Positions 311 through 56,770 of a stretch of DNA of 64,000 nucleotides are shown here, piece after piece. The stretch's first letter is position 1. Each line of letters begins with the position of its first letter. Both the position numbers and the translations under genes were made by a program. The notes beneath the pieces were generated by a model, which had not been told where the DNA came from, did no database searches, and worked only from the letters and a program-made list of their open reading frames with translations. Source of the stretch: Trebouxia sp. TZW2008 (lineage: Eukaryota; Chlorophyta; Trebouxiophyceae; Trebouxiales; Trebouxiaceae); the NCBI GenBank assembly GCA_002118135.1, contig BDIU01000067.1, positions 213,218-277,217 of the forward strand, written 5' to 3'.

Positions 311-349
311 CAAGTGCTCAGCTAAAGACACAATGCACATGCGCTGCAG

Positions 350-3300
350 GTGCAGAAGGGCAGTCTGCCGCTTAGCGCAGGCGCCACTCTCACCTGGCTT
401 GGCTTCAGTGATGACTCACTACTGGCAGCATATGACTCTGAGGTGAGTCAAATTTGTACTGGTGGTTTCAAGACACATCTGGTTGTGTGTCCAAGAGTGT
501 AATCCTGGCATGCCACCGTGCAACCTGCTGATTGACGGCTTGGTCCTATCTTGTGTCATAGTCATTCAGTCTTGCCTGTTCTGGTGGCAACAGATATACA
601 CACAGGTGCATGCGAGTGTTGCATGTCGTTTGAATTTTGCCCATAGCAGCTGCTATGAAGCTCATGTATTGCCAGGTCAAGTAAAATTCATTACAGCAGC
701 AAGAGGACGCATTGTATGACACTGTCAGAGTCTGGGTTCATGCATCAGACCAAATGCAAAGGCGAGCTCCATTCTTTGCACCATGCACCTTGACTTGAAG
801 GGACAGAGATAGCATCTGCCCACAACTTTGCCTTCAGCTTGAAATTTTCAGTCCAATGATTGACCACAAAAGTGCTTGGCAGCGCAGGGTGTCTTGAGAT
901 TGCGCAGCACAGAGTATGGAGGCTGCTGGGTGCCAGTGTTTGTGTCAGGACAGCAACGCAAGAACAGCGAGGTCTACTGGCCTGTCGGCCTCGGCATGAC
1001 TCAGCTGACATGCATTGTTTGCACAGCAACACAACCCATTCCTCAGGTCAGCTACATTGACTCTTTGGTGACACTGTTGATTGCGTTTGTGGGCGGAAAG
1101 TCAGCGGGATGTACTGGCCTGATTGACCATGACCTGGCAGGCAACAGACGAGCTGCGCTGACTCTGCTGCTGCTTCCAACTGCATTCTTGTTGACACCTT
1201 TAATTGTGTCAGCACAGCAATCAAGAAGAGCAAGGTACACTGGCATGTCTGCCTCAGCCTGAGCATGACGCAGCTGACGTTTATTGTGTGCACAGCAACA
1301 CAACCCATTCCTCAGGTGAGCTACACTTGTTTCGCTGCACGTTTCAGTTGCACTGTTCGGTGCCAGCTGTATTGTGTGTTGCGCAGCATGCAAGGCTGAT
1401 ATGTGACTTGAGAACACTACACTTTAGCCTGCGGTATGCAATTTCAGCGGACATGCACCTGCGCTGATGAACATGTGCAGGTGTGATGGGATTCCTCTTT
1501 CTGGCAGCAGGCCTGTATGCTTGCAATCATTCAAGCTGGTCAGCATGACCTGATGCATACTGTGTCACTATAGCAGATCTTGTGTTGACTCAGTGTAGTG
1601 CATGTTTCTAAACCAATGAGTATAGACCATATTGTCTCAATAACACTTTCTTTGTAGGTTGCGCCGCTGCCTGTGCTGACAAATGTATCTCTGCAAGTGC
1701 CGGTGCTGACAGCAGATGCTACGTCTGCACAGCTGCAAGCAGACTGCCTGAAAAGCAATATGGAGCTTACCCACAGCCGTGTGCAGTTAGCAGAACAGGT
1801 GATCATCAAGTCTAGCACATTTAGAATACTAATGAGCGTCCACTGGTTATTTGGCGCATACAGCTTGGGATCGGCAGCCAGAGGCATCGCTGAAAGGAGT
1901 CTTCAGCTGTTTATTGAATGAAGAAGCCATGCAAACACTCAATGCCTTGATACAATTTGTGATCATGCCATTACAAGACGTTTACAGCTCACCTTCAAGA
2001 CATGCATAGTGTACACATCAGTGGTCATGGCCCATGCGTGATGAATGTTGTTTGCTTTGAACATGTAGCAAGCATGCAGCATGCTCATCAGCTGCATATG
2101 CTGATCCTTGCATGCTTGCAGAGTGAGTCTGGTGAAAGCACCAGCGTAGCAGAGCAACGGGTGGCAGCAGCAGAGGTGCCTCTTGACTGCTGCCTATCCA
2201 AGCTGTTCAACGTTGCTATCAGAGGCGACAAAATGCAGCAAGTCGTTGAACCAGCCTGGCACCTGACACAAATCCATGTGTATTACTTACAGAGCGAGTC
2301 TGGTGAAAGCACTAGCGAAGCAGAGCAACGGGTGGCAGCAGCAGAGGTGGCTCTGGATCGTTGCCTGCTGAAGCTGTTCAACACTGCTGTCAGAGGCGAC
2401 AAGTTGCAGCAAGCTTTGGAAGCAGCTTGCCAGCTAACGCAAGTCAGGTCTATGGAGGGTGCCATCAAGCTGGCAAACCATAACAGGCAAACTGCCTTGG
2501 CTGATAGGATAGCGCTATTGCTAGAGGCCCGCCTAGAACAAGAAGCTGCTGAGGCAGCTGATCAGGTACAGCCAATATTGATGACAGCTTTTGTGACCAG
2601 GGGAAAGGCCTTGGTCAGAAGTAGCACTGCCTTCATTTCTGGATAGCTCTGTTGCTGGAGGCTCGCCTTGAGCAAGAAGCCGCTGAGGCAGCCGATCAGG
2701 TATAGCCAATTGTAACGTCTGTGTTGTTACCGAGGAGATTGTTCTTACCGAGAAGGTCTCTGCCTTGGCTGATAGGATAGCGCAACTGTTGGAGGCTTGC
2801 CTGGAACAAGAGGCTGCTGAGGCAGCTGATCAGGTATAGCCACTTTCGATGACAGCTTTTGTGACCAAGGAAAAGGCCTTGGTCAGAAGTGACACTGCCT
2901 TAGTTTCTGGATAGCGCTGCTGCTTGAGGCACGCCATAAGCAAGAGGCTGCTGAGGCAGCTGATCAGGTACAAAAAAATTGTAATGACTGCATTTGCCCC
3001 CAAGGAGGTTGTCCTTACTCAGAGGCACCACTGCTTTGGCTGATAGGATAGCGCTACTCTTGGAGGCTTGCCTGGAACAAGAGGCCGTTGAGGCAGCAGA
3101 TCAGGTACGGCCAGTTTTGACAGCTTTTGTGACCAAGAAACAGGCCTTGGTCAGAAGTAACAATGCCCTACTTTCCGGATAGCGCTGCTGCCGGAAGCCC
3201 GCCTTGAGCCAGAGGCTGCTGAGGCAGCTGATAAGGTACAGGCCAGTTGCAATGCTTGCATGCATCAGAAAGAGTATTGTCCTCACTGAGAGGTGCAACT

Positions 3301-6064
3301 GCCTTGGCTGGCAGGATAGCGCTACTGTTGGAGGCTAACCTTGAGCAAGAGGCTGCTGAGGCAGCAGATCAGGTACAGGCCACGTGCAATGACTGTGTGA
3401 CGTTCCCAAGGAGATAGTCCTTACTCAGAGGGTCTCTGCCATGTCTGGTGGAATAACTCTGCTGCTGGAAGCTCGCCTTGAGTAAGAGGCTGCTGAGGCA
3501 GCAGATTCGGCACAACCAATTGTAATGGCTGCGCTTCTTACCGAGTAGATTGTCCATACTTGGAGGTAACATTGTCTTGACTGATAGGATAGCTCTGCTA
3601 CTGGGGACCACACCAAACACAAGAGGTAGCTGACCAGGTACGGTCAACTCTTCGTGTAGTGACTGCTTGCGTCCTAGAAAACTATCCGTGCTCAGAAGTG
3701 CTGCTGCCTTGGCTGATAGGATAGCGTTGCTGCTGGAAGCACCTCACACACGAGAGGCTGCTGAGGCAGCTGATCAGGTATCACCAGTTGTAATGATTGC
3801 ATTCGCTACCAAGGAGATTGCTTGTACTCAGAGGCACAACTGCTGTGACTGACAGGATAGTGCTACTTTTGGAGGCTGGCCTTGGGCAAGAAGCTGCTAA
3901 GGCAGCCGATCAGGTAATACAGTGTCTTTCTCTTTGTAAAGACTGCTTTGGTCACAAAGAAAACTGTCCTTACATCAGACTGTCCATACTCAGAGGGACC
4001 ACTGAGTCTGACTGCAGTGGTTGGTTCCCAATCACATTGTCCTTACGTCCAGAATGTCTCTACATCAAGTGTTCTACAAAGAGAAGCCACTGCATACCAT
4101 TGTCGACATTGTGTTTGATTCCATCTGCGGAAGTATATACCCACAAGACTGAGGCTTGGCTTATCTTGTGCCTATATGCAGGTCATCAGTCCAGAACCAG
4201 TTGCCGAATTGCAAAGTGCAGACGCTGATGGCACAGCAGCTAGCCAGAGGCCTTCACCAAGGCGTCAAGAGAACATGATAGAGCCTGCTGACGACAGCCC
4301 TGTCAGGATTGAGATTTGGTCTGTCTTGTGCCAACATGCAGGTCAAGACTCCAAATTCATGCAATCATTTGATTCATCATGGTAGCTGGACTTAGCCTTC
4401 TCACTGCTGACAATACATCGCAACAAGACTTGACATGTCTTGTGGCAACTTGCAGGTCATGAGCCCAGAGCCAGCTGCAGAATTGCCAAGTGCAGATGCT
4501 GACGGCGCAGCTGCTAGCCAAAGTCCTTCACCAACGCCTCAAGAGTCACAACACATCTTGCTGGCATGAATCTCATCATGATCGAGACTTGGCATGTCCT
4601 GTGCCAATCTGCAGGTCATGAGTCCGGCTTGATGCAATCATTTGGTTAGTCACGTGTAGCTGGACTGTGTCTTCTCACTGCTGACATGCCATCGCATCAA
4701 GACTTGATATGTCGCGTGTCATCTTGCAGGTCATGAGAGCACAGCCAGCCGCAGAATTGCAAAGTGCAGATGCTGACGGCGCAGCTGCTAGCGCAGCTCC
4801 TTCGCCAACGCCTCAAGAGAACACGACACAACCTGCCGCCAGGGTCAGGCCTGCTGCACATCTTGTGCCAGCATTTCAACTGCTGACATACCATCAGGAC
4901 TAAGACTCGACATATGTTGTGTCTATACGCAGGTGATGAGTCCAGTACCAGCTGCAGAAATGCAAAGTGCAGATGCTGATGCCGCAGCTGCTAGCGCAAG
5001 TTCACCCCCTTCACCGATGCCTCAAGAGAACACAACACAACCTGCCGCCAGAGTCAGGCCTAGTGCGCACCTTGTAACGGGATCTAGCTCCAGGTCAGTG
5101 CTTGCGTGCTTCCTGTGGGGTTATTGCAAAGCTTTTGTGTTTTTGTAACCCATCCCTTGTAGCCTGCAGCTGCAAGAGGATTTATTGTGTTGCTACTTGT
5201 GCACGCCCTTCAACAACGCCTCAAGAACGCGACACATTCTACTGCCAGCGCCAGGCCAAGCGCACATCTTGTAGCTCCAGGCGTGACTTCAAATTAGTGC
5301 TTGCAGCCTGTCCCTCAGCTTTCCTGGTGTATATTTCATCAAGGGTTTTAAAGTTGTCCCCGTCCCTCATGTTTTGTGCTCGTAATGAAATTGAAGGTGT
5401 TGCTGGTAGTGCAAGTAGTTCAAACAAACACGACACAGCCTACAGCCACAGTCAGGCCTGCTTGCACATCTTGTAGCACCATCTGGCTTCATGGAGATGC
5501 CTGCATGCTTCCCTGCAGATCTCTTACTGTATTTTTCACAAGATATTGTGGATCGTCCCCATCTCTCATTTTCTGCGTTTGCATAAAGGTCAAAGGCAGG
5601 TTTAGATTTTCAGGGATAAGTTTGCAAAGCAAGGGAATTTGCTGAACTTAGTTCTGGCATATGGACAGCTTTGAAGGCAAGTGCTTCAAACACAGTTGTT
5701 GCAGCATCATCGAGTGCTCAACATATTGAGCTGGGCCAATGCGCTGGCAAAATGCACTTGGTGTGTGCAGCAGTGGATTGTCCCACTTTGCAGGGCATTG
5801 CAAGTTGCGCTTCATTTGCCTGCAATGCTGAGCAATAGCATGCTGTAAAGGTTGCAGCCAGATGAAGAACTGCAAGTCTTGACAACTTGCAAATGCCCGT
5901 GCCGCAACCATCTGTGATTTCCCTGCAGGAAACCTCTGGCTGCGGCCAACACAGCTTCTGTATCTCAAGATAATCATATGCCAAGCAAAACTTCAGGGAA
6001 GCGAAAACCACAGCCACAACAGACGGGCAATCCTTTTGCCCGTGCCAAAATGGCCAAGTCATGA
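350..6064 (+). CDS. CTF4: Ctf4/WDHD1/AND-1-like replisome adaptor, 5' incomplete, with amplified internal exons
   Basis: Ctf4/AND-1 is a trimeric hub that links the CMG helicase to polymerase alpha at the replication fork in the nucleus. The WD40 N-terminus lies outside the window. Readable exons are 350-442 (LPLSAGATLTWLGFSD), 888-1046 (GVLRLRSTEYGGCWVPVF), 1658-1798 and 2293-2565 (GDKLQQALEAACQLTQ, then MEGAIKLANH and a helical ADRIALLLEARLEQEAAEAA). All of these are phase 0 and match the SepB beta-propeller and helical region of the family. A linker of Ala/Ser/Pro-rich exons lies at 4182-5093. A final exon at about 5996-6064 encodes KRKPQPQQTGNPFARAK and a stop. How the linker exons splice to the last exon is not resolved; phases disagree for the most obvious choice. 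Three exons have been tandemly copied (listed separately). Confidence 0.85.
888..1314 (+). repeat. Duplicated CTF4 exon (2 clear copies, one worn copy between)
   Basis: The 3' part of the exon at 888-1046 recurs at about 1207-1314, ending in the same ATTCCTCAG followed by a GT donor, with the two donors 268 bp apart. Relative to the functional exon the second copy is frameshifted; the homologous frame reads SKVHWHVCLSLSMTQLTFIV. A more degraded copy is visible at about 1083-1135 (TTTGTGGGCGG...TACTGGCCTGATTG). The first exon is taken as functional because it alone keeps the acceptor, frame and family motif. Confidence 0.75.
2122..2460 (+). repeat. Duplicated CTF4 helical-domain exon, 171-bp unit
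   Basis: The blocks starting AGTGAGTCTGGTGAAAGC at 2122 and AGCGAGTCTGGTGAAAGC at 2293 are 171 bp apart and about 150 bp of each is strongly similar. Both follow a CAG acceptor in phase 0. The first copy ends without a GT donor, while the second continues through MEGAIKLANH to a proper donor at 2565. The first is therefore probably a dead 5' copy. Confidence 0.8.
2433..3913 (+). repeat. 11-copy tandem array of an exon 3' end plus intron, about 135-bp unit
   Basis: The segment encoding ADRIALLLEARLEQEAAEAADQ-like sequence plus its downstream intron is repeated. Splice-donor or equivalent positions are 2565, 2699, 2833, 2967, 3104, 3235, 3372, about 3508, 3637, 3777 and 3913 (spacings 129-140 bp). 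Nine or ten copies retain an (A)G|GTA donor. Copies 2, 4 and 6 share TTTCTGGATAG- or TTTCCGGATAG-type sequence upstream and GGCCTTGGTCAGAAGT, whereas copies 1, 3 and 5 carry TTGGCTGATAGG. The first part is thus a dimeric, roughly 268-bp higher-order repeat. Copies after the first would be about 82 nt exons if the CTCAG acceptors were used, which is not a multiple of three. Confidence 0.9.
4182..5480 (+). repeat. Tandem array of the CTF4 linker exon, about 274-bp dimeric unit
   Basis: Full copies begin after CAG acceptors at 4182, 4456, 4730 and 4933 and encode AEL(Q/P)SADADG followed by A/S/P-rich sequence. Truncated copies start at about 4344 and 4615 and share GCAATCATTTG and the TAGCTGGACT block. 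Full and truncated units therefore alternate (4182 to 4456 is 274 bp; 4456 to 4730 is 274 bp; 4344 to 4615 is 271 bp). Two degraded copies lie at about 5205-5290 and 5425-5480, recognisable by CCTCAAGAACGCGACAC and GCACATCTTGTAGC. Copy 2 carries an in-frame TGA. Confidence 0.85.
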
Positions 6065-6560
6065 AGTGTTCTGACCAAGTTGAGTCATGTCTTGAAACAT
6101 TCAGTTAGTGGCTGGAGGCCTAAGAGTCAACCCTGCACACAACTGTAAGGCTGACTGAGCCGAAGCATGACTTTCTTCATCACACAGACTGCAATTGCAA
6201 GCTGGCATGTCACATTGGTACTTTGCAATGCTGACAGGCCTTGTGAACTTTTGATGGCAAACGATGCACCAAGACTGTTCCACGCTGCTTTGGAGCGGCC
6301 TTTGCTGAAAGCATGCTCAGCTTGTCACAATAACCTTCTCCACTATGCTCAGCTTACACAGAAGCAGGCCCTGCCATGCTGACTGCATGTGGCTTCCATC
6401 AAGTCCTGCCATAGGTTCTGCCATGCTATGGTGCTGCACACGCATTCTGATCTTGCAGAAGCGCAAAGGCCTAGCTGGCAGCAGCGCTAGATCGAGGGTC
6501 ACGGACCATCTCAGGAGCCGAGTGATGCTGACCGACCTCTTGAACTAGCTTTGTCCTGTG

Positions 6561-9500
6561 ATGCTGAGAAAGCTTTTTCAGGTGGTTCCGAAAAAGCCGA
6601 TTCGTGATCCAGTTGCTGACAAGAAGCTCTCGGTGCTTGCTTGGTGAGTGCTGACCGTACACACGGTCGAACGCAACATGTTTGCTGCAAGTCTGCGGCG
6701 CTCAAGTCGTGCTGTTTGCGCAGGGGGCGAAACGTAGAGGGGCAGTGCGGTGTTGAGAACAAGCCAGTCTTGTCAACACCTGCGTTGTTGCAGTCGCTTG
6801 AGACCGCTGATGTACGCTCTGTGATTGCGGGGAAGCTGCACTCAGCAGCACTGCTCAAATCTGGCGAAGTTTGCACCTGGGGTTGTGGCAAAGCTGGCAA
6901 GTTAGGTCATGGGTCCTCGGACAACTTCAGTGAACCCACCAGGTGCTCGTCTCAAGCTGTCTTCCAGCACTACTGGTGTCTCAGACTGCTCATTAACAGG
7001 CCTCACAGCATTTGACACTTCATCAGCCAACAATTTGCAGCATGTTGCTCATGAAGCCAGCGCACACTGTATTGCAGCCAGCAAAATGCAGCTTGTTGCT
7101 TTGAATGCCAGCGCACACTATACTGCTTCCCTGTGAGTTAGATCATTGGATGCATCTGCAGGGTCGAGGCATTGATAGGTCGTGGTGACATTAAGGCAGC
7201 AGCTCTGGGGTCACAGCATACACTGTTTCTGGACAGCAAAGGAGTTGTCTTCAGCTGCGGCGAAAACAAAGAGGGCCAGTGCGGATACGGTACATCCATT
7301 GATGTGCTTGCACAGCAGCGACGGGAGGAATGGGCAATTGGTGCCAATGTTGGGCGCATTGCTAACAGCCTCAGCAGCAGTTCTGTTGGCATGGATGGGC
7401 ATGGCAGCAGCAATGAGCAGCATGCCAGTCAAAGATCTCAGCACTCTGCTTGGTTCAGTGGACAAGCCTTGAAGCCTTTTATCGACAGAGGCTCAAGGCA
7501 GGCTGAAATACAGGAGGCTAACAGGTACAGAATTTTCTCTTTATGACGATCGTGTTGATTGCCAAGAAAATGACATTCACACTGAACTGTGCTTGCAAAG
7601 ATATCACTGCAGTCAGACTGCAGTCGTTGCTTCGCAATTGCCTTGTCCTTACATCAACAATGTCCGTATATCAAGTGTCTTCATGATGAGAACTTACTGT
7701 GCATGCTTAGAAGATCTTGAGTGATGCACTGACCTCGTCATGGTCAAGGCCCAGCCAGAATTGGTGAAACTAGAGCAACAGACTTGCACATTCATTGCAT
7801 CCTTTATACTTTCAGCATATATACTCTGCTTGAGCAGCCAACTGCTGATTAGGTTCTGACTGGCAGGATCATCATCATCAACAACCCAACGTGCTCTTTA
7901 GTCTGAGATTTAAAACGCGAACACATCGAAGGTCACATCGACGCTTGTGCAACAAATTCCAGTCATTTGTTGATATGTTGCATGTGTACATCTGACCAGT
8001 GGTGCTCAACCTTATGCTTTTGTGACATGAATCAAGGCAATTGCAGTTGCATCACTTTTCTGTCGTTGGTCCCAATTTATTGGTGTGCATACAGGCTATT
8101 TGAGCTAGGCAAACAGGAAAGGTCTCGTTCGCATCAGTCAGCCTCCACCTCCTCTCATGACGGGCCCTTTGGCAGCAAGGGTTCTTCCAAGCCAGTGTGG
8201 GACGCTGCCATGTTTGGCCCTAGCGCCCTCCTGCCTGGCCAGTCTCACACGCCCACTAGAATTGGACGAGACTTGCATGAGCTTGTTGCAGAACCAGATG
8301 GAGAGCAAACAGGAGGTGAGAACACTGCAGTTTGTTTTGTCTTTTGATTGTCATGAACTGTGCAGAGCAGACATCCAGCCCTAGCGCCCTTCTGCCTGGC
8401 CAGTGTCATGCACCCACTAGAATTGGACGAGACTTGCATGAGTTGGTTTCTGAGCCAGATCGGGAGCGAACAACAGGTGAAACTTTGGGCGTACAGGGCT
8501 TCTTGCAACTTGGTTGATGCATCTGATATGCGGTAACTGCTTCTGCATGCACCTAGCAGCCTTGTGAAGCCTTCTCACCAGGCAGCCATCTTCAACCACT
8601 AGGACTGGATAGTTGCGCACACAAGGTCATCCTTACAGCATCAGTCATGCATATGACAACACACACCACAGCTGTCACTTTTGCCACATGCAGGCAGTGA
8701 AGGGGAGGTGGTGAGGTCTGTAGAAGCCTCAAGGTATTTCAGCATGCTGCCTACTGCCAAGGGGAAATCGGGGCTTTGCAGGGGGCCACAACATAGCTAT
8801 GCCACACATTCTTGCCGACGCCTCATGATGCAAATTGCAAACGCCACACATGTGAAAATGTTTTCCACATGCAGGCATTGAGAAGGAAGTGGTGAGAGCT
8901 GTAGCAGCCTCCAGATACTTCAGCATGCTAGCCACGGCCAAGGGAGAGATCTGGGGCTTTGGAGGGGGCTTCAATGGGGAACTGGGCTTCAGAAACTCCA
9001 GCTGGGTCACCTCTGCCAGAAAGGTGGAGGGCCAAGTTGCTCAGGTGCGCCTTTTGGATCTCACCCTGCTACAGTGCAAGTCCAAAGCAACTCCTGCTGC
9101 TATGCAAGTCTAACCTGATTTCCACAGCTGTATCTGGTCATGGGCAGACAAATATCCTGAGGCAATTGCTTCCACACGGGAGTTTGCAAAGGGATTGTCA
9201 CTCTCAGACATGGCATAACATGCATGCATCAGACTGGTTTACATAGTTGCCTGGTCAAGAGCTTTAACCTGACCTGCTACCGCCTCCACCTGGTGAGACA
9301 CTGTGCGAAGCATATGTAGACATGTTGCTGCATACAGTCATGTACATGGCGACCCTGCTGATTGTCATGCCATGACCTGAGTGACATTTGTGCACTAGAC
9401 ACTGCAATACAATGGTGGGGCTATAGCTCTAGAGGCAGGGGGTACCTTCTGCACGGCTCTGACAGCCCAAGACAAGATGATCGTCCGGGGTAAGATCGGT

Positions 9501-15676: not shown

Positions 15677-15709
<33 letters not shown>

Positions 15710-18038: not shown

Positions 18039-18829
18039 GTCAACCAGAGCAGATATCTTGCTGAAACTTCGGAAGGGGCGATCTCAAGGATGATGAAGCC
18101 TACGACTGCACGCCAACCTTCGCGGCTGTTCCAAGCCTCGACAGCTCCGGCGCTGAATTGTGATCAGCGCACTGCAGTTAGAGCATCCAAGGGTTTGACT
18201 TTTGGCGCTTTGATCGGCAGATTAGTCAAAAACATCGGGCTTGTTAGTCACGGCAGGTCAGCATTGTGCAGAAAGCAGGTGGCTGTGCTCAGAAGCAAAT
18301 TCTCCAATGTATATGCAGACAATTACTAGACGCATCATGTACAGATGTGTATGACCAAAAAGCACCCGTGGGGCAAGCAGCTACCGTACAGCCTGATCAT
18401 CAATTCAACAAAATAAAGACTGGTGAAAACATCATCTGATAAAATGCGTGTGGCACTTGACGTCTCATAGTAAACTACGTGTGAACACATGAATGCACTG
18501 AGGGCAAGGACACAGCAATTTTGCCGACTCAGTGCCGAGCATTGCTGTTGGATACAAGCTCTTTCGCTGGTGTGGTATTGGTGTATCGTACACATACATT
18601 GTGCTTGACAGATCAGTCATCAGCATCACAACAGACGAACAGTGCAAGCCGTTTGCCCTGATGCTGATGACTTGCTCTTGTCCTTGTGCATGTATGATGC
18701 TGCAAGCGGCCTGCCCATCACAGACCTGTGCTACTAGCTACGCCTAACAGCCAAGCAGTCACAAATTTAATTGTTTAAACAAGGCCAACAACACACATTC
18801 CCGTTGCAATCAAATGACTCATGCTTGAC
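18039..18829. other. Gap between CEP95-like start and FUSC gene end
   Basis: The two genes are on the same strand in tandem. No convincing coding exon is seen. The right part probably holds the FUSC 3' UTR and the left part the CEP95-like promoter and 5' UTR. Confidence 0.4.
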
Positions 18830-21800: not shown

Positions 21801-24800
21801 TATGCTGACGCTGAAGAATGGAGTAGCATGCAAGAAGTGAAGTGGCAGCTGTCAGCAGACAGCGTGCTTAAAGGGCATAGACAGTGCTAGCACAAACATC
21901 CATGTGTAGGCGCAGATGATCACTGCCAATGCCATTGGACTGCATCAAGCCATGCACAATGTCATTGAATGCTGCTGACGGATCTGCTGACTGGAGAGAC
22001 ATATAGTGACAGTTGATAATGGGAAATTGAATGTGTGCTGTCAGGCAGACAGCAAGCAGCATTGCAACAACACATAAGAGAGCCGTGTCACATGACCAGA
22101 GCATTGACAGCATGACTGAGCTTACTCAGTGCTCAAGCGTCAGCATACAACAGCTGTGCCTTGTCATGTGTGGCAGGACACACATTTAGGCTGTCAAGGT
22201 TCACTTGGATTTTGCAGTTTGCTAAGATGCTCATGGCAAAATGCAATGCTTTTTTATGAAGCAAAACAAGACAGCTGCAAGGTGTGAGGCAAGAGTTCAC
22301 AGCTGTGACGTCATGTTAGTAGTACCTGGTGGCTAGGCTGGTGCGTAGCATGACCACATATCCAATAGCCCCACCAAAGCTGCTGCCAACAAGACGTAGC
22401 AAAGCTGCAGCAAGCACATTCAGCCAGTGAGAGCAAACTTGAGACTGTCAATCAGTCAGCCAGTGAGAGCAAAATTGTGGCTGTCAGTCAGTCAGTCAGT
22501 GAAAGCATCGTTCAGTCTGTCAGCCAGTCAGCCAGCAAGTCGAAGCATGAGTCATTCTGTAAATCGGTCAAGCAGTCTATCAGGTCATGAGTCATGAATT
22601 AATGAGATTGCCACATGGAGTCAGGTAAAGGATTGCTGTGCATTGCACATTCTGTCTTGGAGCGCAACTTGTTGCTTGACAGCATAACACTGTGTATGAG
22701 GCAAGGACCTGCTAAGCACCTGTTGCTTCACGGCAAGCGTTTAATGGCATGCTCATACAGCATGGGGATATTCCTGTGGCACAAATTGTTGCCAAAGCGG
22801 TCTTTCTGTGCGTGCACAAGATCATCACGCCGGGCAAAACCAGCCTTTAAAGGATTGCTGACATCTTACAACAACAACAAGTTGGCAGAAGACAGATGTC
22901 TATGCTGCAGCATGGAAGCAGCTCGGTGCAGAAGCAGCCCAAGAAAGATAAAGTCCATCACAGCCAAGCAGATATGCCAGGATGTATACCTTTGGTGATG
23001 GTTGTGTCAACCTTCTCACTCATCACAACCACGACAGTGATCATGACATACAGCGGGGACCATTCCCGGATGGAAGGTGTGTCTTGTGACAGCAGGATGC
23101 AGCCGCAGAGGGAAGTGGACATGGCAAACCAGTACTTGCAGAAGAATTGGAACTTGCGCCCATGCCTGCAGAGCACAGTCTACTACTGAGACACTCATCA
23201 CAACCACAAATTGGTTGCGGGGACCATTGGTCGGAAGGGGTGGCGGCCCTGTGACAGCAGTTGGCAGCCGCAGAGGGAAGTGGACATGGCAAACCAATAC
23301 TTGCAGAAGAACTGGATTTGCAAACATGCTTGCACAGCACAGTCTATTGCTGAGGAACTCATCATCACCGTGACAATGATCATGACATACAGCAAGGACC
23401 ACTTTTGGATGTAAGGCGTGTCCTGTGATAGGAGTATGCAGCCGCAGAGGGAAGTGGACATGGCAAACCAGTACTTGCAGAAGAACTGGAACTTGCGCCC
23501 ATGCCTGCAGAGCACAGTCTACTACTGAGACACTCATCACAACCACAAATTGGTTGCGGGGACCATTGGTCGGAAGGGGGGGCGGCCCTGTGACAGCAGT
23601 TGGCAGCCGCAGAGGGAAGTGGACATGGCAAACCAATACTTGCAGAAGAACTGGATTTGCAAACATGCTTGCACAGCACAGTCTATTGCTGAGGAACTCA
23701 TCATCACCGTGACAATGATCATGACATACAGCAAGGACCACTTTTGGATGTAACGCGTGTCCTGTGATAGGAGTATGCAAATGCAGAGGGAAGTGGACAT
23801 GGCAAACCAGTACTTGCAGACGAACTGAAATTTGCGTCCATGACTGCAGAGCACAGTCTCTTGCCAAGCGGCTGCCAATGCCAGAAGCATCAGATGGGAA
23901 TGCATGCTCAAATTGTGCAGGAGCTGACATGATTGGGCAAAGCGTGCACGTCAGGCATGGCATGCAAAGCAGGCACAGCGTGCAAAGCGTGGGTAACATG
24001 CTTGAAGCAGACCGCCCTTCAAGGTTGCTCATCAGCTGCAATCAAGGACCCGTCAGATCACGCATGGCATACGAAGCAGGTATAACATAACATTCACAGC
24101 ACACACAGCGTGCAGAGCATCTACAGCATGCAAAACATGGCGCAAAAGAATGCAGCAGGGTGTCCTTCAAGACCGCTGTTGAGCTGCAAGCCTGAGGCAC
24201 TGCCTGTGAAACAGTCATCCAAAGAGCCTGGCAATGACTGACAGTCCAGCCAGTTTGAGCAATGAGTTCACAGCAAGCAAAGCATGCAAAGCACGGCGCA
24301 TGGCTTACAGCGATTTGTTCCTCAAGGTTGCTGTTGAGCTGCAGTGAAGGACCAGCCAGATTGAGCATGGCATACACAGCAGGCATGGCCTAGCATGCAC
24401 AGCATGCAAAGCAGGCATGGCATGCAAAGTACAGCACACAAACTTACAGCACAGTGTCCTTCAAGGTAGCTTTTGAGCTGCAGGCCTGAGGCACTGCCTG
24501 TGACACAATCTTCCAAAGGCCCTGGAAACACATCTGAGCCAGCATAGTCCGTACAAAGTCATCCACCCACTTCACTTGGCTGTACAAAGAAGCTTGCGCA
24601 CTCGCTTTGCCTGCATGTGCACAGCAAGACGATTCTCAAATACACCTGCTGTGACTGCTGCAAATAAATAGCTAAGCAAGGTCCTAGTTGTGCATAGCCC
24701 TTGCAGCTAACAACAGCGATCAGACAGCATCAAACGCTTGATCACTGTACAAGGCTGTGCAAGGTCAAAGCTATATTTGCGCAGGTATGACATTGGCCAG

Positions 24801-27483
24801 ACGAAATTTTGCCCAAGCAATATTGAATTACTACAAGCAATGTACAGCAAGCAATGTTATGGTAGTACAACCACATACATTGCCATTTGTCAAGTTTTCA
24901 TGAGCAGCATACCTGAGTTGGGCTGCTGCGTCTGGGACGGCCATTGCAGGGGTCTATGCCTAAAGCTCACAGGAAGCAAGCGCTTGGCTGAACCTGTGGT
25001 CTTGTGCCAAGGCCTTGGAGCTGACACCTGCCTCTCTGTCTGGTCTGCTGAAGCATTTGGACCCGCAGCTGAGCCAGATATTGGTACAGAAGACCCATTT
25101 ATTGGTGTCATACCTGAAAATCATCGAGTAACTGCCACCTCATTTACATGTGTGTCATGGTGAGGATTGCCTTTCCTGCAGTAAGGTAACAAGAGACGGA
25201 AAGGCACCCAATGATGCGCAGCAAGTTGTGCCATTTTGCTCTGCATGTTGAGCACATGTAGCATGCCAAATTGCCACTTGCCATGTTGTACAAGACACGC
25301 AACAAGATGCACTTTTGTGTATTGCTTGATCCCAAGGGCTGGAGGTGCAGTGACAGTATTTTCCCGAGACCATGAATTCAAGTCTGCCACATTGTCGTGA
25401 ATGACCAGCTGCTACCCTGTAATCTTGCACCGGACCATTGCAAAGCTCAAAAGGCATGAGCGTGCACAAACAAGACATCCTGATACGTAAGTGCCCCACT
25501 GATGCACCGTTACCATATTGTTGCTGTTGCGTCCATTGCTTCTCAGACACACTGAATTGGTCAAGGGCCTGATGTACAGGTGCAGGCGCTTCGACAACTC
25601 CTTTGGGGTCCCCAACATCTGCAGGGGGGTTGTAAAGGGGTTTCTGCAAGCCAGGCGTTGGAGCTAGCATGTCCATGAATGCTGCCTCCATATTTGACAT
25701 GGCTTCCATGATGGCATTGGTCAGGGTGCTGGTATACAGCAGCGCACGTGCCTGCATCACATGATGCTTTGCAGCGTTCCTATGCATAAGAGCATTGATC
25801 TGTCAAAAAGACAGCTGGCGTGAAAGGAGAGCCGTCAAGACGCTCTCGCAAGAGCTTGAAAGATAGCATGCTTCAAGTCAGTTGCAACAGTGATGTATGT
25901 GAGGTTACTGAGTGAAATGTGAGTGCAGGCTGCCAAAGCCTCGCATTACTTGATGCCATTTGCATGACACTGCTGATCAGTGGTCTCAACCTTTTGGCGC
26001 TCATAGGCGCTATTGTCAATTGCCGTTTCTGGCAAGAACAGTTTTGCAGTTTAGGCTCGGAAGTCACCAGCTGCCTATTGCTGTTGGTCGTTGCAGTGGC
26101 ATTGCTAGAGCCTGTAGGCTGTGCACACTGTGTGGGGCTTTGGGTGATTGAAGGCGCTTGGCGTTTGAGTGTGTGGCGTTAGCTGAGTTACGGACCAAGT
26201 ATGCTCATTTGTTTGGAGGCTGCGATCGTAACATGCGTGCTTTCTTTGCGCAACATGATCGTTGGGGGGTGCTTCGCTATGTCATGGACTGCCTGAACCT
26301 CATGGACATATATGCAGTGCCACTATGTGGCACATGCAACCAGCCTTGTTGGCTGGCTAAAGCATGTGAATTAACTCTCTGTCTCTCTCAGCATCACAGC
26401 ACAGATGCATTCAACAGCATGCATTTACTTGAGGCAAAGATACAGTGAATGTCACCATTTACTGGCATATCGATGCACCCTGCTCAGATGTACTGCCACA
26501 TTGCAGGTTTTGGCGCAACGCTGTAGACAGCATCACAAGGTCTACCCTGCTAGCACTCGTAAGCCTGCCTTGATGCAGTGCCAACGGCAAGGGTGCAGCG
26601 AAGGTTTGCTGTTCACTGGAATGATCTCACAAGCACACATTCACAATGCAGTGAAGGTGTGCTGTTGACTGGCATGCACTCACAAGCACATATTTGCAGC
26701 CATGTGTTCACAGGCATGTCATGATGTGCTAAAATAGTGTCAACCTGGATTGTGTTGCTTCAAGGTATCTGCGAGCATGCACTACCTGTGGCGAAGGTGC
26801 AGTGAAGGTGTGTTGTTCACTGGCTTGCCACCTGGCCCAGTAGCCTTGGGAGGTGGCGTGCAGGGTGTGCGCCAACTCATGCTCCAGAGCACTCCAGCTC
26901 AAGCCAAATACATATTTTTGACCACTCTGCAGACAAACAGCAGGATGACAATGTGAAGACAGCAATGCAGAAAAACATTGGAAGCAGAAGAAAATGTGTC
27001 AGCTGATGCTTCGGAGCACTCCAGCTGGTGTCAAACACATTCTACTCACACTCTGCACATACAGGTGGCCAAGAAGACAGGTCACAACTCCATAAACAAC
27101 TGAGTACTCTCCACCTGGGTGATTGACAATCTGACATGCTGACATATTGCGTCTGACGCATTGCTGCCCATGCACTGCGCAATCTCAGTTCACATTGCAT
27201 CTCAGCAATTCATTTTTTGATCCTTGCATAATGCATATAGTGTGTTTCTGATTGTGAAGTACGTACGGCGATTCACTGTCCAGAACAACACACAGCATGC
27301 GTGTTCTGCTCACCTTCAGTTCGCTTGGATGGTTCTTGAGCTGGTTGGCATGGTGGGCACAGGCTGCCGCCATCTGACCATACATCAGCTGCAGCGCCGC
27401 AAACACATCCAGCCCCAGCAGCTGTTTCAAGCGGCCAGGATGCAGCTGTGACCCATGCGCACCTGCCACTCACACAAGTCCTG

Positions 27484-27516
<33 letters not shown>

Positions 27517-30500
27517 GAAGCATGCATGTATACTGACACCAGAACAGGCTGCGGCCATCTGGCGATACATCAGCTGCAGCACGGCAAGCACGTCCAGCCC
27601 CAGCAGCTGTTTCAGACAGCCAGGATGCAGCTGTGACCCATGTGCATCTACCAATCGCACAAGTCAGCTAGAGTTGTCAGCATTAGAAGTGCACAGGTAG
27701 ACGCAGAGATGCACTGTATGACTGTGCAGAACCTCAAGCTGCAGCACTGCAAAGACATCCAGCCCCAGCAACTGTTGCAAGCCGCTGGAATGCAGCTTGG
27801 ACCCAGAACTCTCACCTTTGAGCAGGGACTCAAGGGCAGCAACTTTGGTGATGAGGCTGTCAAAGGCTGCAAGGGCCGGTGGCCATTTCTCAAGAGGAAT
27901 GCGATGCCTGGCGAGGCATGGGGGCTCCTTCTGAGCCTCTCCTAGAAGCAGGCGGCAATGGGCAACAAGGGGCCGCAGCTTGGCCACTGATGATGCACAT
28001 GCTGGGTGTTGATGGCTAGAGTCTACTGCTGGATCTGTTGCCAGCCTTGTCACTTCCCTGCGCAGGCAAAAGCTATGTGTGGCCGCAGCAGCAGCAACAG
28101 CAGCAGCAGAAGCAGCAGGGTTGTGTGGCAAGGCATGGGGGCCCTTCTGTGTATTTCTGGAAGCAGCCGGCATTGAGCAACATGAGGCTGTAGCTTAGCC
28201 ACTGATGATGCACATGCTGGGTGTTGATGGCTAGAGTCCACAGCTGGATCTGTCGCCAGCCAGTTACTTCCCTGCAGCAAGTGGTCTTTGACAGCAACTT
28301 CATGAACACCATGATCACCATCATCATCTGCTTCGGCATCAGCAAAAATAGCAGCATCATGTCCATGCATTGTAGTGACAACACATCACCCTGTGAGGTG
28401 CACATAGAAGCAGTGAATCAGAGGCCGTAGCTTGGCTGCTGATGATGCAGAAGCCGGGGTGCTGCGGGCTGAAATCTATGGCTGGATCTGCAGCCAGCCG
28501 CAGATCTGCCCTGCAGTAGCAGGAGATGCAAAAATGTTGGCAGACAGGTAAGTCAGACGTGATGAATGTGGTGAGCATGAGGGCAGCATTAAATACTTGA
28601 TGCTGAGATTCGATCACATCAAGCAGTGCTATATCTCCTGCAGGCCAAGAAATGTGTGCTTGCCTAACCCCATGCTTCATGATAGAGACTTCAGAGCAGC
28701 TTCAGGCTAGCTCAGCTCAGTTCAGCTTAGCTCAGAACTGCTCAGCTCACTTCAACTCAGCTCAGCTCAGGTGCTTACCAGTAGTCATCACCTTCCTGCT
28801 GACTCGCCACGTCAGATGGATATGTGTTCTGGCTGGCTGGCTTGTAGGGCAATGCACCGTCACTGGCATTGTAGACATCCCCAGCATAGACCTTGTCAGG
28901 AGAGTGATGCTCTGGCTGAAGGATGTGAGTAGCATAACTGCAACACAGCAGCAGACATCCGTATACATGCAACACAGCAGCAGATATCTGTATACATGCA
29001 ATACACAGCTGATGCACCGTCAAGTGGCTGTCATGGACACTCTCAGGCACAGGTGATCAGGCTCTAGGCTCTCAGCTGTGACACACAAGGCGATGGCTGA
29101 GTGTCAAGGTGAACCGAAGACTTGGTTAGGCTTGAGCGTGCACTAGCTGGTTGCAATGTATATACTCCAGTGGGAAACCCGAATGCATACTCACTGCATT
29201 GTCACACTGCCTTTGCAAGCCACAGGACCTCTGCAGTCAGCCTCATAGCGTAATGAGGGCATGCCCTGCCACATTGATCAGCCGTCATAACTGGCAAGAA
29301 AGAGCAGCAATCAAGGTCAGCCCTCAAAATCAGCTGGTTGATGCTCAAGGACAGCTGTCACAATTGGCAGCCACAGTCAGCACTGACAACCAACTATCAT
29401 GACCAGCACTCAAAACTACCAGAGCAATGCTCAACATCAGCATTGAAACAAGCAGTCCAATGCCCAAGAGCAGCGGTCACAATCAAAAGTCAAGATGAGC
29501 AGTCTTCATCTGCATTCAATACCAGCAGTGCAACGCTCAACATCAGAAGCCAAGACCAGCGATCACAGTCAGTAGTCAACATCAGTGTCAGGATCAGCGG
29601 TCAGGCTCAGCAGTCTTTGGACAGCAGTCCAATCCTCAACATTGCGGCCAACAGTTAGTCAGCAGTCAGCAGCAGCCCTCAAGATCAGCTGAACAGCGCT
29701 GACCGTGACAAGGAGTGTCCAAGCTTGGTTAGGACCTCATCAGCCTCTGCCTGCAGGGTGTCTGAAGCCAGGATGGGCAGTGCAAGGAGCCCTCCTGCTG
29801 CCACTCCTAGTGATGACACCAGGCCATCCATCAGTATGTGCCCAACAGCCTGCATATACACAAGCTTGGTTAGGACCTCAGCAGCCTCTGCCTGCAGGGT
29901 GCATGAAGCCAGGATGGGCAGTGCAAGGAGCCCTCCTGCTGCCACTCCTAGTGATGACACTAAGCCATCCATCAGTATGTGCCCAACAGCCTGCATGTAT
30001 GCAAGACATGCCAATATGATGCCGTTGATATGATGCTGATGCTGATGCTGGTGCTGGTGCTGGTGCTGGTGCTGGTGCTGGTTGACACAAATTAGGCATG
30101 ATGTACAAATTCCAGGTTTGTAGTTGCTACAATGAGTACAAGCGCCAAGCAGAACTGATGCTCCTACAGACCATCAGCTCATGTGCTGATACCCTGCCAT
30201 TGGTCCACATAGCATGCTTTAGTCTTGTATATCAGAAATGCCTCAAGGCAAATAGAACAACTTTCAACTTGCTCCAGCTCTGTCAAACATTGCCTGTGTG
30301 ACGCAAGACACCCTGCAAGAGGCATCTATGTATACGCATGCCACCATCACCTCTTTCCATAGCAATTGATAGCCATGCGTAGCTTGCCATGTGAATTGCC
30401 CCTGTATGACAGTAATGCCAAACCCCAGGTTGCTGAATATGCCAACTCCGGGACCCATTGTGGACCTCAGCAAGCACACAGGCAGCAGCCCAATCACACT

Positions 30501-31811
30501 GAAGAGGCAGAGCAGCCCAGTGAAAGCCACTTGGCATGCACGCGCTATGCTGATCTGCAACACCACATTGTGGACCTCAGGAAGTGTACAGGCAGCAGCC
30601 CAATCGACTGAAGAGGCACAGCAGCCCAATGAAAGCCACCTTGCATGCGCGAGCTATGCTGATCTGCAACAGCACATCAAGCAAGCACACAGGCAGCAGC
30701 CCAATCGACTGAAGAGGCACAGCAGCCCAATGAAAGCCACCTTGCATGCATGAGCTATGCTGATCTACAACAGAACATCAAGCATGTCTTGGTCAGCACA
30801 AGTAAGCACATGGTATTTGATGGTTTCTGCACGCCACTTAGTACGAGCAGAGTAGCCCGGTGAAAGCCACTTTGCGTGCACAAGCTATGTTGATCTGCAA
30901 CAGCACACCCAGCAGGCACTTGTCGGTGTGATCAAGCACATAGTTTGCTCTGTATTCTGCACATGTCAGGGCTGCACAGCACTCTAAAGGACAAGGACAA
31001 ATGCAGCTGAGGATAAGTGTGCAACACACCAACAGCCAGACCAACAGCCGGCTCTGTCTCACACCAAACAGCTTGCAACGATGGTATATGATGCAGCAAG
31101 CAACGCCAGCGACAAGATGCATGAGCTGAATGCCATAGCGTCGTGTGCTGCAGTCTGTCAGTACTGGTCCATATTTTCGACTCACCATGCAACCAGCAGT
31201 GATGCTGCCAAACCACAAAGGCCCAATGACAAAAGCTGCAGCGTTCATTTTGCTTCCAACATGTGCATCTTTTGAGTCCAGGATGACTGCTGCTGTGTAG
31301 AACACAGATGCCAAGCAGCTGTTACTGTAGTGCAGCTTGTTTACTAGCACAAACAAGCAGATCACTAGCTCTCCTGCAAACAGCATGCCAACTTGTCAAG
31401 CAGATTGTGGCGTGCTGTGTTGTGATGTGTTGTGCTATGTCGTGCTGTGTTGTGCAGTGCCGTGCTGCTTGCTGCTGGCTTGACTGCTGCATGTCTGTAG
31501 TGAAGGCCTGAAGCTCACACGTACCAAACATCAGCTGGAGAGCTGCATGAAACTCCCTGGAATTGATGAAAGCTTTCACACGATCCTTGAGAGCAGGACT
31601 TGGTGGGAATGTTGGCGTATGCGCCTTAAGTTTGTCTGGGAATGGTTTGCCTGAAAAACACACTGCTTTGACTATTGTGAAGTGTAAAATAGAAGTGGCG
31701 TGCCACCTTGTATCAGAGCATACAGGTCGTGTAGCCTAGTGCTTTAGCCGTAAGACCCACGCAATTGTGACCTGCCTGAGTCGATCTCGAGCGCCACGTG
31801 CGGGGTGACAT
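18830..31811 (-). CDS. FUSC/ArAE-type (fusaric acid resistance-like) membrane transporter, 13-kb gene
   Basis: Members of this superfamily have two membrane bundles separated by cytosolic regions and export aromatic or organic acids. Exon 1 is 31772-31811; exon 2 is 31525-31650 (ALKDRVKAFINSREFHAALQ). The first membrane bundle lies at 31.4-29.7 kb (FVIGPLWFGSITAG, LVSSLGVAAGGLLALPILA). Soluble loop exons follow at about 28.9-24.9 kb. The second bundle includes HGRKFQFFCKYWFAMS with YVMITVVVVMSEK, LVGSSFGGAIGYVVML, ALAVIICAYTWLFGLA and SIAVGVIVVLIIGLILPW. Cytosolic C-terminal exons are 20300-20480, 19492-19760 and 18830-19082 (stop). The order matches the FUSC-then-FUSC_2 layout, so I join all exons, but a split into two genes near 25-26 kb (a LINE fragment lies there) is possible. 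At least nine exon segments are duplicated. Confidence 0.68.
19421..19458. repeat. Perfect 16-bp inverted repeat, 6-nt loop
   Basis: CTTCACATGCAGCTTT at 19421-19436 is the exact reverse complement of 19443-19458, around the spacer TAGCTG. It lies in a FUSC intron just downstream of the exon ending at 19492. On transcription it would form a stable hairpin. Confidence 0.9.
20130..20345 (-). repeat. Duplicated 3' end of a FUSC exon
   Basis: The end of exon 20300-20480 (VLWKRGILVMPK) recurs at about 20130-20200. The copy has a GC rather than GT donor (CCCAAG|GCATGC) and keeps only about 70 nt of coding similarity. Confidence 0.8.
21710..21985 (-). repeat. Duplicated start of a FUSC membrane-helix exon, about 168-bp unit
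   Basis: Sequence encoding the first part of ALAVIICAYTWLFGLAQ at about 21715-21800 recurs at about 21885-21970 with nearby matching intron sequence (CACTGTCATTATATGCTG versus CAATGTCATTGAATGCTG). The 21.5-21.8 kb copy carries the full exon. Confidence 0.78.
22418..22565. repeat. CAGT-rich minisatellite
   Basis: Imperfect repeats of CAGTCAGCCAGTGAGAGCAAA and simple CAGT units lie in a FUSC intron, immediately next to the exon encoding LVGSSFGGAIGYVVML. Confidence 0.8.
23000..23845 (-). repeat. Five-copy array of a FUSC membrane exon in an ABABA pattern, 339-bp dimer
   Basis: Copies of the exon encoding FFCKYWFAMSTSLCG occur at about 23083-23145, 23255-23320, 23432-23500, 23595-23660 and 23780-23840. 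They alternate between two types: CI(L)LSQDTP-type and CQLLSQGR-type. The A-B dimer at about 23160-23498 repeats almost base for base 339 bp later. The leftmost copy (23083 type) continues into ITVVVVMSEK and a GT donor and is the best candidate for the functional exon. Confidence 0.92.
24000..24530 (-). repeat. Four copies of a FUSC exon, 150-165-bp spacing
   Basis: The segment encoding LQ or SS followed by A(T/V)LK(D/E)(T/Q), with its GTAAG-like donor, recurs at about 24000-24050, 24155-24245, 24315-24350 and 24465-24550. The rightmost copy (24465-24550, QGLWKIVSQAVPQACSSKAT) is the longest. Spacer DNA is rich in GGCATGCAAAGCA-type short repeats. Confidence 0.7.
25930..26320 (+). mobile_element. 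Relic of a second LINE family (C-terminal zinc-knuckle region)
   Basis: One frame reads ARTVLQFRLGSHQLPIAVGR, then RACRLCTLCGALGD, a TGA at 26149-26151, and RRLAFECVALAELR in the same frame. The pattern RFRLGSH...CxxC...HxxFEC is typical of the C-terminal part of some algal and plant-lineage LINE polyproteins. The stop is a single nonsense change and nothing of the reverse transcriptase remains nearby. It is antisense to the FUSC gene. Confidence 0.7.
26585..27060 (-). repeat. Partial duplicates of a FUSC loop exon
   Basis: The exon at about 26788-26937 (GLSWSALEHELAHTLHATSQ) has a partial copy at about 27003-27055 (TTCGGAGCACTCCAGCTG...ACTCTGCA). The block GGTGCAG(T/C)GAAGGT(G/T)TG(T/C)TGTT at its other end recurs at about 26590 and 26649. 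Confidence 0.7.
27340..27820 (-). repeat. Three copies of a FUSC loop exon
   Basis: The coding block (R/C)LKQLLGLDV(F/L)A(A/V)LQL, or LQQLLGLDVFAVLQL, occurs around 27370-27460, 27555-27640 and 27735-27815, spaced about 185 and 165 bp. A (CAG)n tract lies at about 27486-27520. Confidence 0.85.
27850..28515 (-). repeat. Three copies of a second FUSC loop exon
   Basis: LATDPAVDSSHQHPACASS is found at about 28050 and 28260, and a diverged LAADPAIDFSPQHPG at about 28480. The 27850-28060 copy alone continues through HCRLLLGEAQKEPP and ALAAFDSLITKVAAL to a donor. A GCAGCAGCAACAGCAGCAGC tract follows at about 28085. Confidence 0.85.
28700..28775. repeat. CTCAG-type minisatellite
   Basis: GCTCAGCTCAGTTCAGCTTA and further CTCAG variants lie next to the FUSC exon encoding HHSPDKVYAGDVYNASDGAL at about 28780-28925. 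Confidence 0.8.
28940..29010. repeat. 29-bp minisatellite
   Basis: Repeats of ACACAGCAGCAGA(C/T)ATC(C/T)GTATACATGCA, two full and one partial, in a FUSC intron. Confidence 0.75.
29721..30003 (-). repeat. In-frame 141-bp tandem duplication of a membrane-segment exon
   Basis: AAGCTTGGTTAGGACCTCA starts at 29721 and again at 29862, and the two 141-bp (47-codon) units are nearly identical. On the minus strand both units are open in one continuous frame, each encoding a hydrophobic LVSSLGVAAGGLLALPILA segment. They are followed on the right by a GATGCTG/GGTGCT microsatellite at about 30031-30081. Confidence 0.9.
30455..30905 (-). repeat. Four copies of a FUSC membrane exon start
   Basis: Sequence encoding (I/L)Q(I)(S/N)IA(C/R)A(C/R)(Q/K)VAFTGLL recurs at about 30455-30560, 30575-30660, 30690-30765 and 30850-30905. 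The leftmost copy continues through VCLLRSTMGPGVGIFSNLG. Intervening CAAGCACACAGGCAGCAGCC blocks are shared. Confidence 0.82.
31408..31475. repeat. GTGCTGTGTT-type minisatellite
   Basis: Degenerate TGTTGTG(C/A) units lie in the intron between FUSC exons 2 and 3. Confidence 0.7.

Positions 31812-45629: not shown

Positions 45630-48518
<2,889 letters not shown>

Positions 48519-53052: not shown

Positions 53053-56770
<3,718 letters not shown>

What the first reader, a model, noticed from the sequence alone, without database searches (positions are those of the whole stretch)
888..30905. Regional cluster of exon-seeded tandem arrays across four adjacent unrelated genes
At least 18 independent tandem duplications of exon segments (2-11 copies) lie in CTF4, RCC1-repeat, CEP95-like and FUSC genes between 0.9 and 30.9 kb. 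From 32.7 to 64 kb I find no exon array in eleven further genes, although they have the same intron style. In most arrays one copy is intact and the rest have a lost acceptor, donor or frame, often keeping good splice sites. This looks like a local duplication process that repeatedly uses exon-intron junctions, leaving fields of decoy exons. An assembly artefact is possible but unlikely, because copies have diverged to different degrees.
Basis: partly seen in the sequence, partly recalled or inferred. Interest (0 to 1): 0.88.

Follow-up and report, generated by a model that had tools for sequence, protein, structure and literature searches.

The report
Short tandem exon-fragment arrays, Trebouxia alga
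In the genome of what looks like a lichen alga, stretches of about 100 to 220 DNA letters have been copied side by side again and again, often catching pieces of exons; the striking thing is the narrow, roughly nucleosome-sized length of the copied unit, not the one neighbourhood where it was first noticed.

Summary
The arrays are real: 18 loci of local direct duplication lie in 0.9-30.9 kb and one minisatellite in 31-64 kb. The "regional cluster across four genes" is not special. The 90 kb upstream on the same contig holds 32 more, 3 of 11 arbitrary 4-kb samples of other contigs hold arrays, and a search by protein family finds same-exon pairs within 2 kb on 24 contigs. Density is patchy, and the array-free right half is a genuine gap.

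The new observation is the unit length. Offsets peak at 160-180 nt and dip at 40-60 and 80-100 nt; inverted copies are nearly absent. No locus has a smallest offset above 300 nt. Genome-wide exon pairs give the same scale: 22 of 27 loci at 133-252 nt.

Copies mostly look like decaying exon fragments; those in CTF4 are mostly younger than the split from another Trebouxia. Exon overlap is enriched only among older arrays, so much of it is probably survivorship; a modest excess of edges at splice junctions remains.

Most likely: a genome-wide bias for nucleosome- or Okazaki-length tandem duplication. The chromatin or replication link is inferred.

The parts
1..6061 (+). CTF4/WDHD1 gene, 3' part (gene starts about 6.9 kb upstream of the window); carries 9 arrays in all, 4 of them inside the window
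   Evidence: Own gene model; Pfam WDHD1 WD40, Mcl1_mid 2-291/291, Ctf4_C; 72% identity to a Trebouxia sp. C0009 protein, whose last residues 766-808 match 5927-6061; arrays
940..1325 (+). CTF4 array, period 264, master exon about 888-1046, copy 1204-1325
   Evidence: sister protein 526-582 matches 882-1052, and 552-582 matches the copy
2115..2445 (+). CTF4 array, period 171: 5' half of exon about 2294-2566 copied upstream, starting at its acceptor
2491..3916 (+). CTF4 array, period 134, about 10 copies of the 3' half of the same exon plus donor and intron start
4152..5512 (+). CTF4 array, several copies of a following exon; spacings 274, 202 and 159
6724..11257 (+). RCC1-repeat gene (own models; the first two exons predicted for it, 5661-6057, belong at least in part to CTF4)
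8217..8480 (+). RCC1 array, period 161: part of an exon up to its donor, copied downstream
8680..8969 (+). RCC1 array, period 181
9380..9870 (+). RCC1 array, period 174, 2.8 copies; the last copy continues into the exon
13105..20573 (-). CEP95-like gene (DUF5745), two adjoining models
   Evidence: domain-to-CEP95 link recalled; that both models are one gene is inferred
14095..14920 (-). two arrays: 14095-14298 (period 167) and 14360-14920 (period 151)
15516..15995 (-). array, period 193
20086..20361 (-). array, period 178
21536..31395 (-). FUSC-family gene, fragmentary models
   Evidence: FUSC_2 E 3.6e-12 on the 21536-23122 model only; extent to 31.4 kb inferred
21691..21974 (-). array, period 166
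23018..23864 (-). higher-order array: units of about 164 and 175 nt, pair repeated at 339 nt with 94% identity
23952..24528 (.). array, spacings 138 and 303, about 75% identity
27359..28516 (-). two arrays: 27359-27805 (185/165) and 27909-28516 (217)
29720..30005 (-). youngest simple pair, period 141, 94% identity, open frame through both copies
30456..30919 (.). array, period 110, about 3-4 copies
31000..64000 (.). array-free half: only the 63-nt coding minisatellite at 42301-42442

Best explanation
The genome, most likely of a Trebouxia lichen alga, has a genome-wide, recently active tendency to duplicate short stretches head to tail with a preferred unit of about 165 nt (mostly 100-220). 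SHOWN on what was sampled: the arrays, their narrow unit length, direct orientation only, patchy distribution, presence on many contigs, and the mostly decaying character of copies. INFERRED: the unit equals the nucleosome repeat / Okazaki fragment length because duplication happens during lagging-strand synthesis or processing (slippage or wrong rejoining of one fragment, helped by short homologies). A duplication in or near an intron is tolerated because the spliceosome can skip the copy. The intact exon stays under selection, so exon-bearing arrays remain recognisable while intron-only ones fade. That gives the look of exon-seeded decoy fields, with some added filtering or microhomology at splice junctions.
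For: Unit length: 46 of the 47 arrays with period >=100 lie at 100-220 nt although the detector reached 500; the 13-mer offset spectrum, free of block-length bias, peaks at 160-180 (1.13 per nt offset per 10 kb), against 0.026 at 40-60, 0.159 at 60-80 and 0.023 at 80-100; inverted copies near zero; one count per locus gives 18 of 43 at 140-180 and none above 300. Genome-wide: 27 exon-pair loci on 24 contigs by protein family, smallest offset 133-252 in 22, 342-358 in 3, 575 and 832 in one each, none below 130; an ATPase exon on C392 in at least 6 copies spaced 183 nt or about twice that; an XPG_I exon on C57 in 3 copies about 155 and 172 nt apart. Decay. Recency: at 91 codons where the CTF4 exon differs from the relative, copies match our exon 63 times, the relative 8, neither 20. 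Locus-specific units: the 1000-3000 stretch matched the genome only at six local places, and of 23 non-local matches within the 154 kb none overlaps an array, by eye. Survivorship. Okazaki fragments are sized by the nucleosome repeat (PMC3600694, whole short text; PMC7817679, passages: 165 bp in yeast).
Against: No nucleosome or replication data for this alga, and no other eukaryote genome to hand as a control for the spectrum; the length match is only a match of scale, and units spread over 100-220 nt. The junction excess persists in young arrays (11 of 68 edges against 2.0), which plain survivorship does not predict. In 28 incomplete pairs the spacer shows homology to a flank in only 12, so some may not be simple contiguous tandem copies. 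16 of 28 copies show no stop or frame break, and only 4 of 699 codons are stops, so some copies may be used. Three of the eight protein families (DEAD, ABC, AMP-binding) gave no pair within 2 kb. Patchiness is unexplained. Flap-nuclease-family exons are present on four contigs, so simple loss of that family is not the cause; which one is FEN1 was not settled.
Confidence: 0.5

Rival explanations
1. Ordinary tandem internal gene duplication by unequal exchange or microhomology repair, with no link to chromatin; the preferred length reflects which lengths selection tolerates inside intron-rich genes.
For: Tandem genomic duplication is an accepted route of intron gain (PMC3443670, passages; PMC4974935, abstract). 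Predicted exons (gene means mostly 100-180 nt) and introns (median 193 nt) are of a similar scale. Two of the younger complete pairs have 4 and 2 nt of homology beyond the period (145 against 141; 89 against 87).
Against: Selection in genes alone does not obviously explain the dip at 40-60 and 80-100 nt or the absence of smallest offsets above 300 nt. I did not test periods separately for exonic, intronic and intergenic arrays.
Confidence: 0.25
2. Exon-junction-guided duplication: breakpoints are chosen at splice sites, for example by CAGG homology between donor and acceptor or by an RNA-linked process, so exons are the true seeds.
For: 20 of 204 block edges within 5 nt of a predicted junction against 6.0, 11 of 68 in young arrays against 2.0, 14 of the 20 with the exon inside the block; 35 of 51 blocks hold a junction against 22.4; strong TGCAG|G acceptor and CAG|GT donor consensus.
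Against: About 90% of edges lie elsewhere; young arrays are not enriched for exons (12 of 17 against 10.8); 9 of 51 arrays have less than 20 nt of exon. Junctions come from my own gene finder, and edges within one array are not independent.
Confidence: 0.12
3. The copies are mostly functional alternative or mutually exclusive exons kept by selection.
For: 16 of 28 copies open in the aligned part; 29720-30005 is open through both copies; third-position excess in both comparisons.
Against: Codon-position ratio of 0.60 fits one free copy (my estimate of the expectation); 55 of 261 conserved residues lost in CTF4; several copies lack one splice site because they start or end inside the exon; the relative's 808-aa predicted protein shows one copy of each CTF4 segment by eye.
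Confidence: 0.06
4. Introners or another mobile element inserted in tandem.
For: Some algal introners prefer nucleosome linkers (PMC9860276, passages).
Against: Units tested are locus-specific; the 28 tested spacers share no common element.
Confidence: 0.03
5. Assembly artefact.
For: Draft assembly, 527 contigs.
Against: Copies differ by roughly 5-33% and to different degrees.
Confidence: 0.02

Closest known systems
Tandem genomic (internal gene) duplication, as in intron gain by tandem duplication (Hellsten 2011, Gao and Lynch 2009: seen as references in PMC3443670; the papers themselves not held)
   Same: Short direct duplication within genes, crossing exon-intron borders, giving new splice-site copies
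   Different: Here dense (51 in 154 kb of one contig), multi-copy, with a narrow unit length; intron gain not shown
Tandem repeats of green algae near intron-exon junctions (PMC3887541, abstract and passages)
   Same: Green algae, introns rich in tandem repeats, more of them near junctions
   Different: That survey covered units of 1-50 bp only, so this class was outside it; its two algae were Chlamydomonas and Volvox
Satellite DNA with nucleosome-length monomers and higher-order repeats (recalled)
   Same: Unit of about 165-180 nt; 23018-23864 has a dimeric higher-order structure
   Different: Each array has its own sequence, few copies, inside genes
Introners (PMC9860276, passages)
   Same: Found in algae, link to nucleosome spacing and introns
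   Different: Not dispersed, no common sequence
Duplications in yeast lacking Rad27/FEN1 (PMC7817679, passage; sizes recalled)
   Same: Direct duplications from faulty Okazaki processing
   Different: Known ones are shorter as recalled; flap-nuclease-family exons present here

Membership tests
Tandem internal gene duplication | Adjacent direct copies of a gene segment | tested here: met
   inverted copies near zero
Tandem internal gene duplication | Copies contiguous, unit = period | tested here: inconclusive
   Homology covers at least 0.9 of the period in 20 of 51 arrays; of the other 31, a global test finds spacer homology in 8, a local test in 12 of the 28 with longer spacers
Intron gain by tandem duplication | New functional intron made by duplicated splice sites | not testable with these tools
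   Needs RNA data
Introners | Dispersed near-identical introns at unrelated loci | tested here: not met
   (one 2-kb query with one whole array and parts of two more): six places, all local; one of 28 spacers matched elsewhere in the 154 kb, within its own array region
Satellite DNA | One sequence family amplified in long arrays | tested here: not met
   Different sequence per array, 2 to about 10 copies
Mutually exclusive exon cluster | All copies conserved as coding exons with splice sites | tested here: not met
   Pooled; individual arrays may differ
Nucleosome/Okazaki-length duplication process (proposed) | Unit length peak near a typical nucleosome repeat | tested here: met
   for the peak near 165; the alga's own nucleosome repeat is unknown
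Nucleosome/Okazaki-length duplication process (proposed) | Breakpoints in linker DNA or at Okazaki ends | not testable with these tools
   No MNase or Okazaki maps

The most novel reading that the evidence does not exclude
A eukaryotic germ line whose dominant small structural mutation is duplication of exactly one nucleosome / Okazaki fragment length of DNA, so that genes are rewritten in nucleosome-sized steps and exon copies are supplied as raw material for new exons and introns.
Probability: 0.25. Interest if true: 0.85.

Novelty: new variant of a known kind. Interest (0 to 1): 0.6.

Why it matters
If the unit length is set by chromatin or lagging-strand synthesis, the alga's genome is a fossil record of a mutation process otherwise seen in repair mutants. 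It would let the link between nucleosomes, Okazaki fragments and small duplications be tested from sequence alone, and it is a natural source of new exons and introns. It also warns that gene models in such genomes will be peppered with false exons.

Tried and rejected
Exon-only copying (RNA-mediated) was considered because many pairs have spacers unlike their flanks. A global test gave 8 of 31 spacers with either side p<0.05, a local test 12 of 28, so plain tandem duplication with intron decay stays possible; left open. A mobile element in the spacers was rejected. A first GHMM run merged the contig into two genes and was replaced. Intron mismatch within blocks (0.097) is biased by the aligner and block limits and was not used. 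Alternative functional exons and assembly artefact: see rivals. Loss of the flap-nuclease family was rejected. Papers: in the titles and abstract starts that ten searches listed (up to 20 papers each, often out of many more) I saw nothing describing nucleosome-length exon arrays in Trebouxia or another alga; 'tandem duplications' with 'nucleosome-sized' gave 0 papers. This covers only the held open-access library.

Full report
What was checked. The window is the last 64 kb of a 277-kb contig of a 68.5-Mb draft genome. A predicted CTF4 segment is 72% identical over its full length to a protein of Trebouxia sp. C0009, so the organism is most likely a Trebouxia-type lichen alga; this rests on one protein. 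Self-comparison finds 18 array loci between 940 and 30919 and one 63-nt minisatellite at 42301-42442. Order-3 Markov resamples give 1, 0 and 0 loci where the real 154 kb gives 43. Copies in the window are 67-94% alike, so read-level artefacts are unlikely.

Is it a regional cluster? No, but it is patchy. The 90 kb upstream on the same contig carries 32 more loci (51 in 154 kb). Eleven 4-kb samples, placed arbitrarily on eleven other contigs, hold 7 arrays in 3 samples; one sample is 65% array, 8 have none. Because few letters could be fetched (198 kb analysed with the window, of 68.5 Mb), I surveyed the genome by protein family, eight families, without taking sequence. With the rows from contigs listed more than once (478 rows), pairs that cover the same part of the profile (at least 20 positions and 60%) within 2 kb of each other occur on 24 contigs, in five of the eight families (kinase, kinesin, p450, E1-E2 ATPase, AAA; none in DEAD, ABC, AMP-binding). 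By my grouping of the list these are 27 loci (C79, C33 and C88 have two each). Smallest offsets: 133-252 nt in 22, 342-358 in 3, 575 and 832 in one each, none under 130. Offsets were interpolated and are approximate; a few pairs (C184, C376, C318) involve matches that are long or run over stops; the second copy is often a weak match (E up to 0.6); and no pair was checked at the DNA level. The right half of the window is a true gap: the longest stretch free of arrays with period >=80 is 33,081 nt, p=0.0008 under random placement; with all 51 arrays the figure is 21,558 nt, p=0.02. Other, shorter gaps exist upstream. I have no explanation for the patchiness.

The unit length. Periods of the 51 arrays run from 63 to 264, median 151; 46 of 47 with period >=100 are at or below 220 although the detector reached 500. 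A spectrum of exact 13-mer offsets, which does not depend on block length, peaks at 160-180 nt, is 40 to 50 times lower at 40-60 and 80-100 (7 times lower at 60-80), and falls after 220, with a second hump at 300-350 that lies mainly in the window's left half. Counting one smallest offset per locus: 18 of 43 at 140-180, 3 between 220 and 300, none above 300; 6 are below 100. The 90 kb upstream shows the same peak alone; the 44 kb of samples peaks at 160-200, with 5 of its 7 arrays in one stretch, L021. Inverted copies at the same distances are practically absent. This scale is that of nucleosome repeats and of Okazaki fragments, which in yeast are sized by the nucleosome repeat (PMC3600694, read whole) of about 165 bp (PMC7817679, passages). 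For Trebouxia I have no such data, and no other eukaryote genome was at hand as a control.

What the copies are. I trained a gene finder on the fetched DNA. Its acceptor (TGCAG|G) and donor (CAG|GT) preferences were re-estimated from its own predictions, and its CTF4, RCC1, DUF5745, FUSC, polyprenyl synthetase, ADH and esterase models are confirmed by Pfam; one of the ten proteins given, from 39583-41737, had no hit. The CTF4 gene runs from about -6.9 kb to 6.06 kb; the relative's protein aligns exon by exon with the predicted masters and more weakly with copies. Between predicted exon and non-exonic copy, mismatch by codon position is 102/757, 94/755 and 166/763; the ratio of about 0.6 is what one constrained and one free copy should give (my estimate). 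Where both are predicted exons the ratio is similar, 0.51. In CTF4, at 91 codons where our exon differs from the relative, copies match ours 63 times, the relative 8 (5 of these in one array) and neither 20; at 261 codons conserved between species copies lost 55. So most CTF4 duplications came after that split, and copies are not held at the old sequence. Against a pure decoy picture: only 12 of 28 arrays show a stop or frame break in the aligned part, and only 4 of 699 codons are stops.

Are exons the seeds? Arrays overlap predicted exons in 42 of 51 cases against 31.1 by circular shift (p=0.0005). Split by age, young arrays (>=85% identity, 17) show 12 against 10.8 (p=0.40) and older ones (31) 27 against 19.2 (p=0.002); three arrays without a long enough block were left out of the split. 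This is what detection bias predicts: a duplicated intron decays on both sides, a duplicated exon on one. Against it, block edges fall within 5 nt of a predicted junction 20 times of 204 (6.0 expected), 11 of 68 in young arrays (2.0 expected) and 9 of 136 in the others (4.0 expected); 16 arrays contribute, and in 14 of the 20 the exon lies inside the block. Edges of one pair are not independent and the junctions are predicted, so I take it as a modest real signal that could come from selection for intact splicing or from the CAGG shared by both splice sites.

Mechanism. Shown on what was sampled: local, direct, repeated duplication with a preferred unit, on many contigs, much of it recent. Inferred: replication or chromatin sets the unit. 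The FUSC array at 23018-23864 shows a second round, a pair of about 164 + 175 nt repeated at 339 nt with 94% identity, so arrays grow in steps. Flap-nuclease-family (XPG_I) exons are present on four contigs, one of them in a 3-copy array, so loss of that family is not the cause.

Comparison with the known. The kind, tandem internal duplication, is known and is an accepted source of introns (PMC3443670 passages; PMC4974935 abstract). A survey of green algae found tandem repeats near intron-exon junctions but searched units of 1-50 bp only (PMC3887541, abstract and passages). Introners are disfavoured by the locus-specific sequence. Ten paper searches listed nothing on nucleosome-length exon arrays that I could see in titles and abstract starts; subscription literature was not covered. 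I rate it a new variant of a known kind.

Noticed in passing
window 23018-23864: Higher-order repeat: about 164- and 175-nt units alternate, the pair repeated at 339 nt with 94% identity, while the two unit types are only about 75% alike.
   Followed up: partly
window 12845-13579 and 45-248, 13424-13627: An ORF that reads like the end of a non-LTR reverse transcriptase (recalled, not tested), overlapping a dispersed repeat of about 200 nt also at 45-248 and, in part, at upstream places.
   Followed up: no
G000 C57:178778-179254: Three tandem matches to one XPG_I (flap nuclease family) exon, about 155 and 172 nt apart, two with stops.
   Followed up: no
G000 C392:167156-168562: At least six copies of one P-type ATPase exon spaced 183 nt or about twice that.
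   Followed up: partly
window 42301-42442: 63-nt coding minisatellite (repeats of QQSEQ type) inside a large open frame.
   Followed up: no
CTF4 gene, -6936 to 6061 on window scale: The gene with the most arrays in the 154 kb (9) encodes CTF4, which recruits polymerase alpha for lagging-strand priming in yeast (PMC7237047, title and abstract start only); probably coincidence.
   Followed up: no
L021 (C100:100001-104000): 65% of this arbitrary 4-kb sample is arrays, smallest offsets 158-222 nt.
   Followed up: partly
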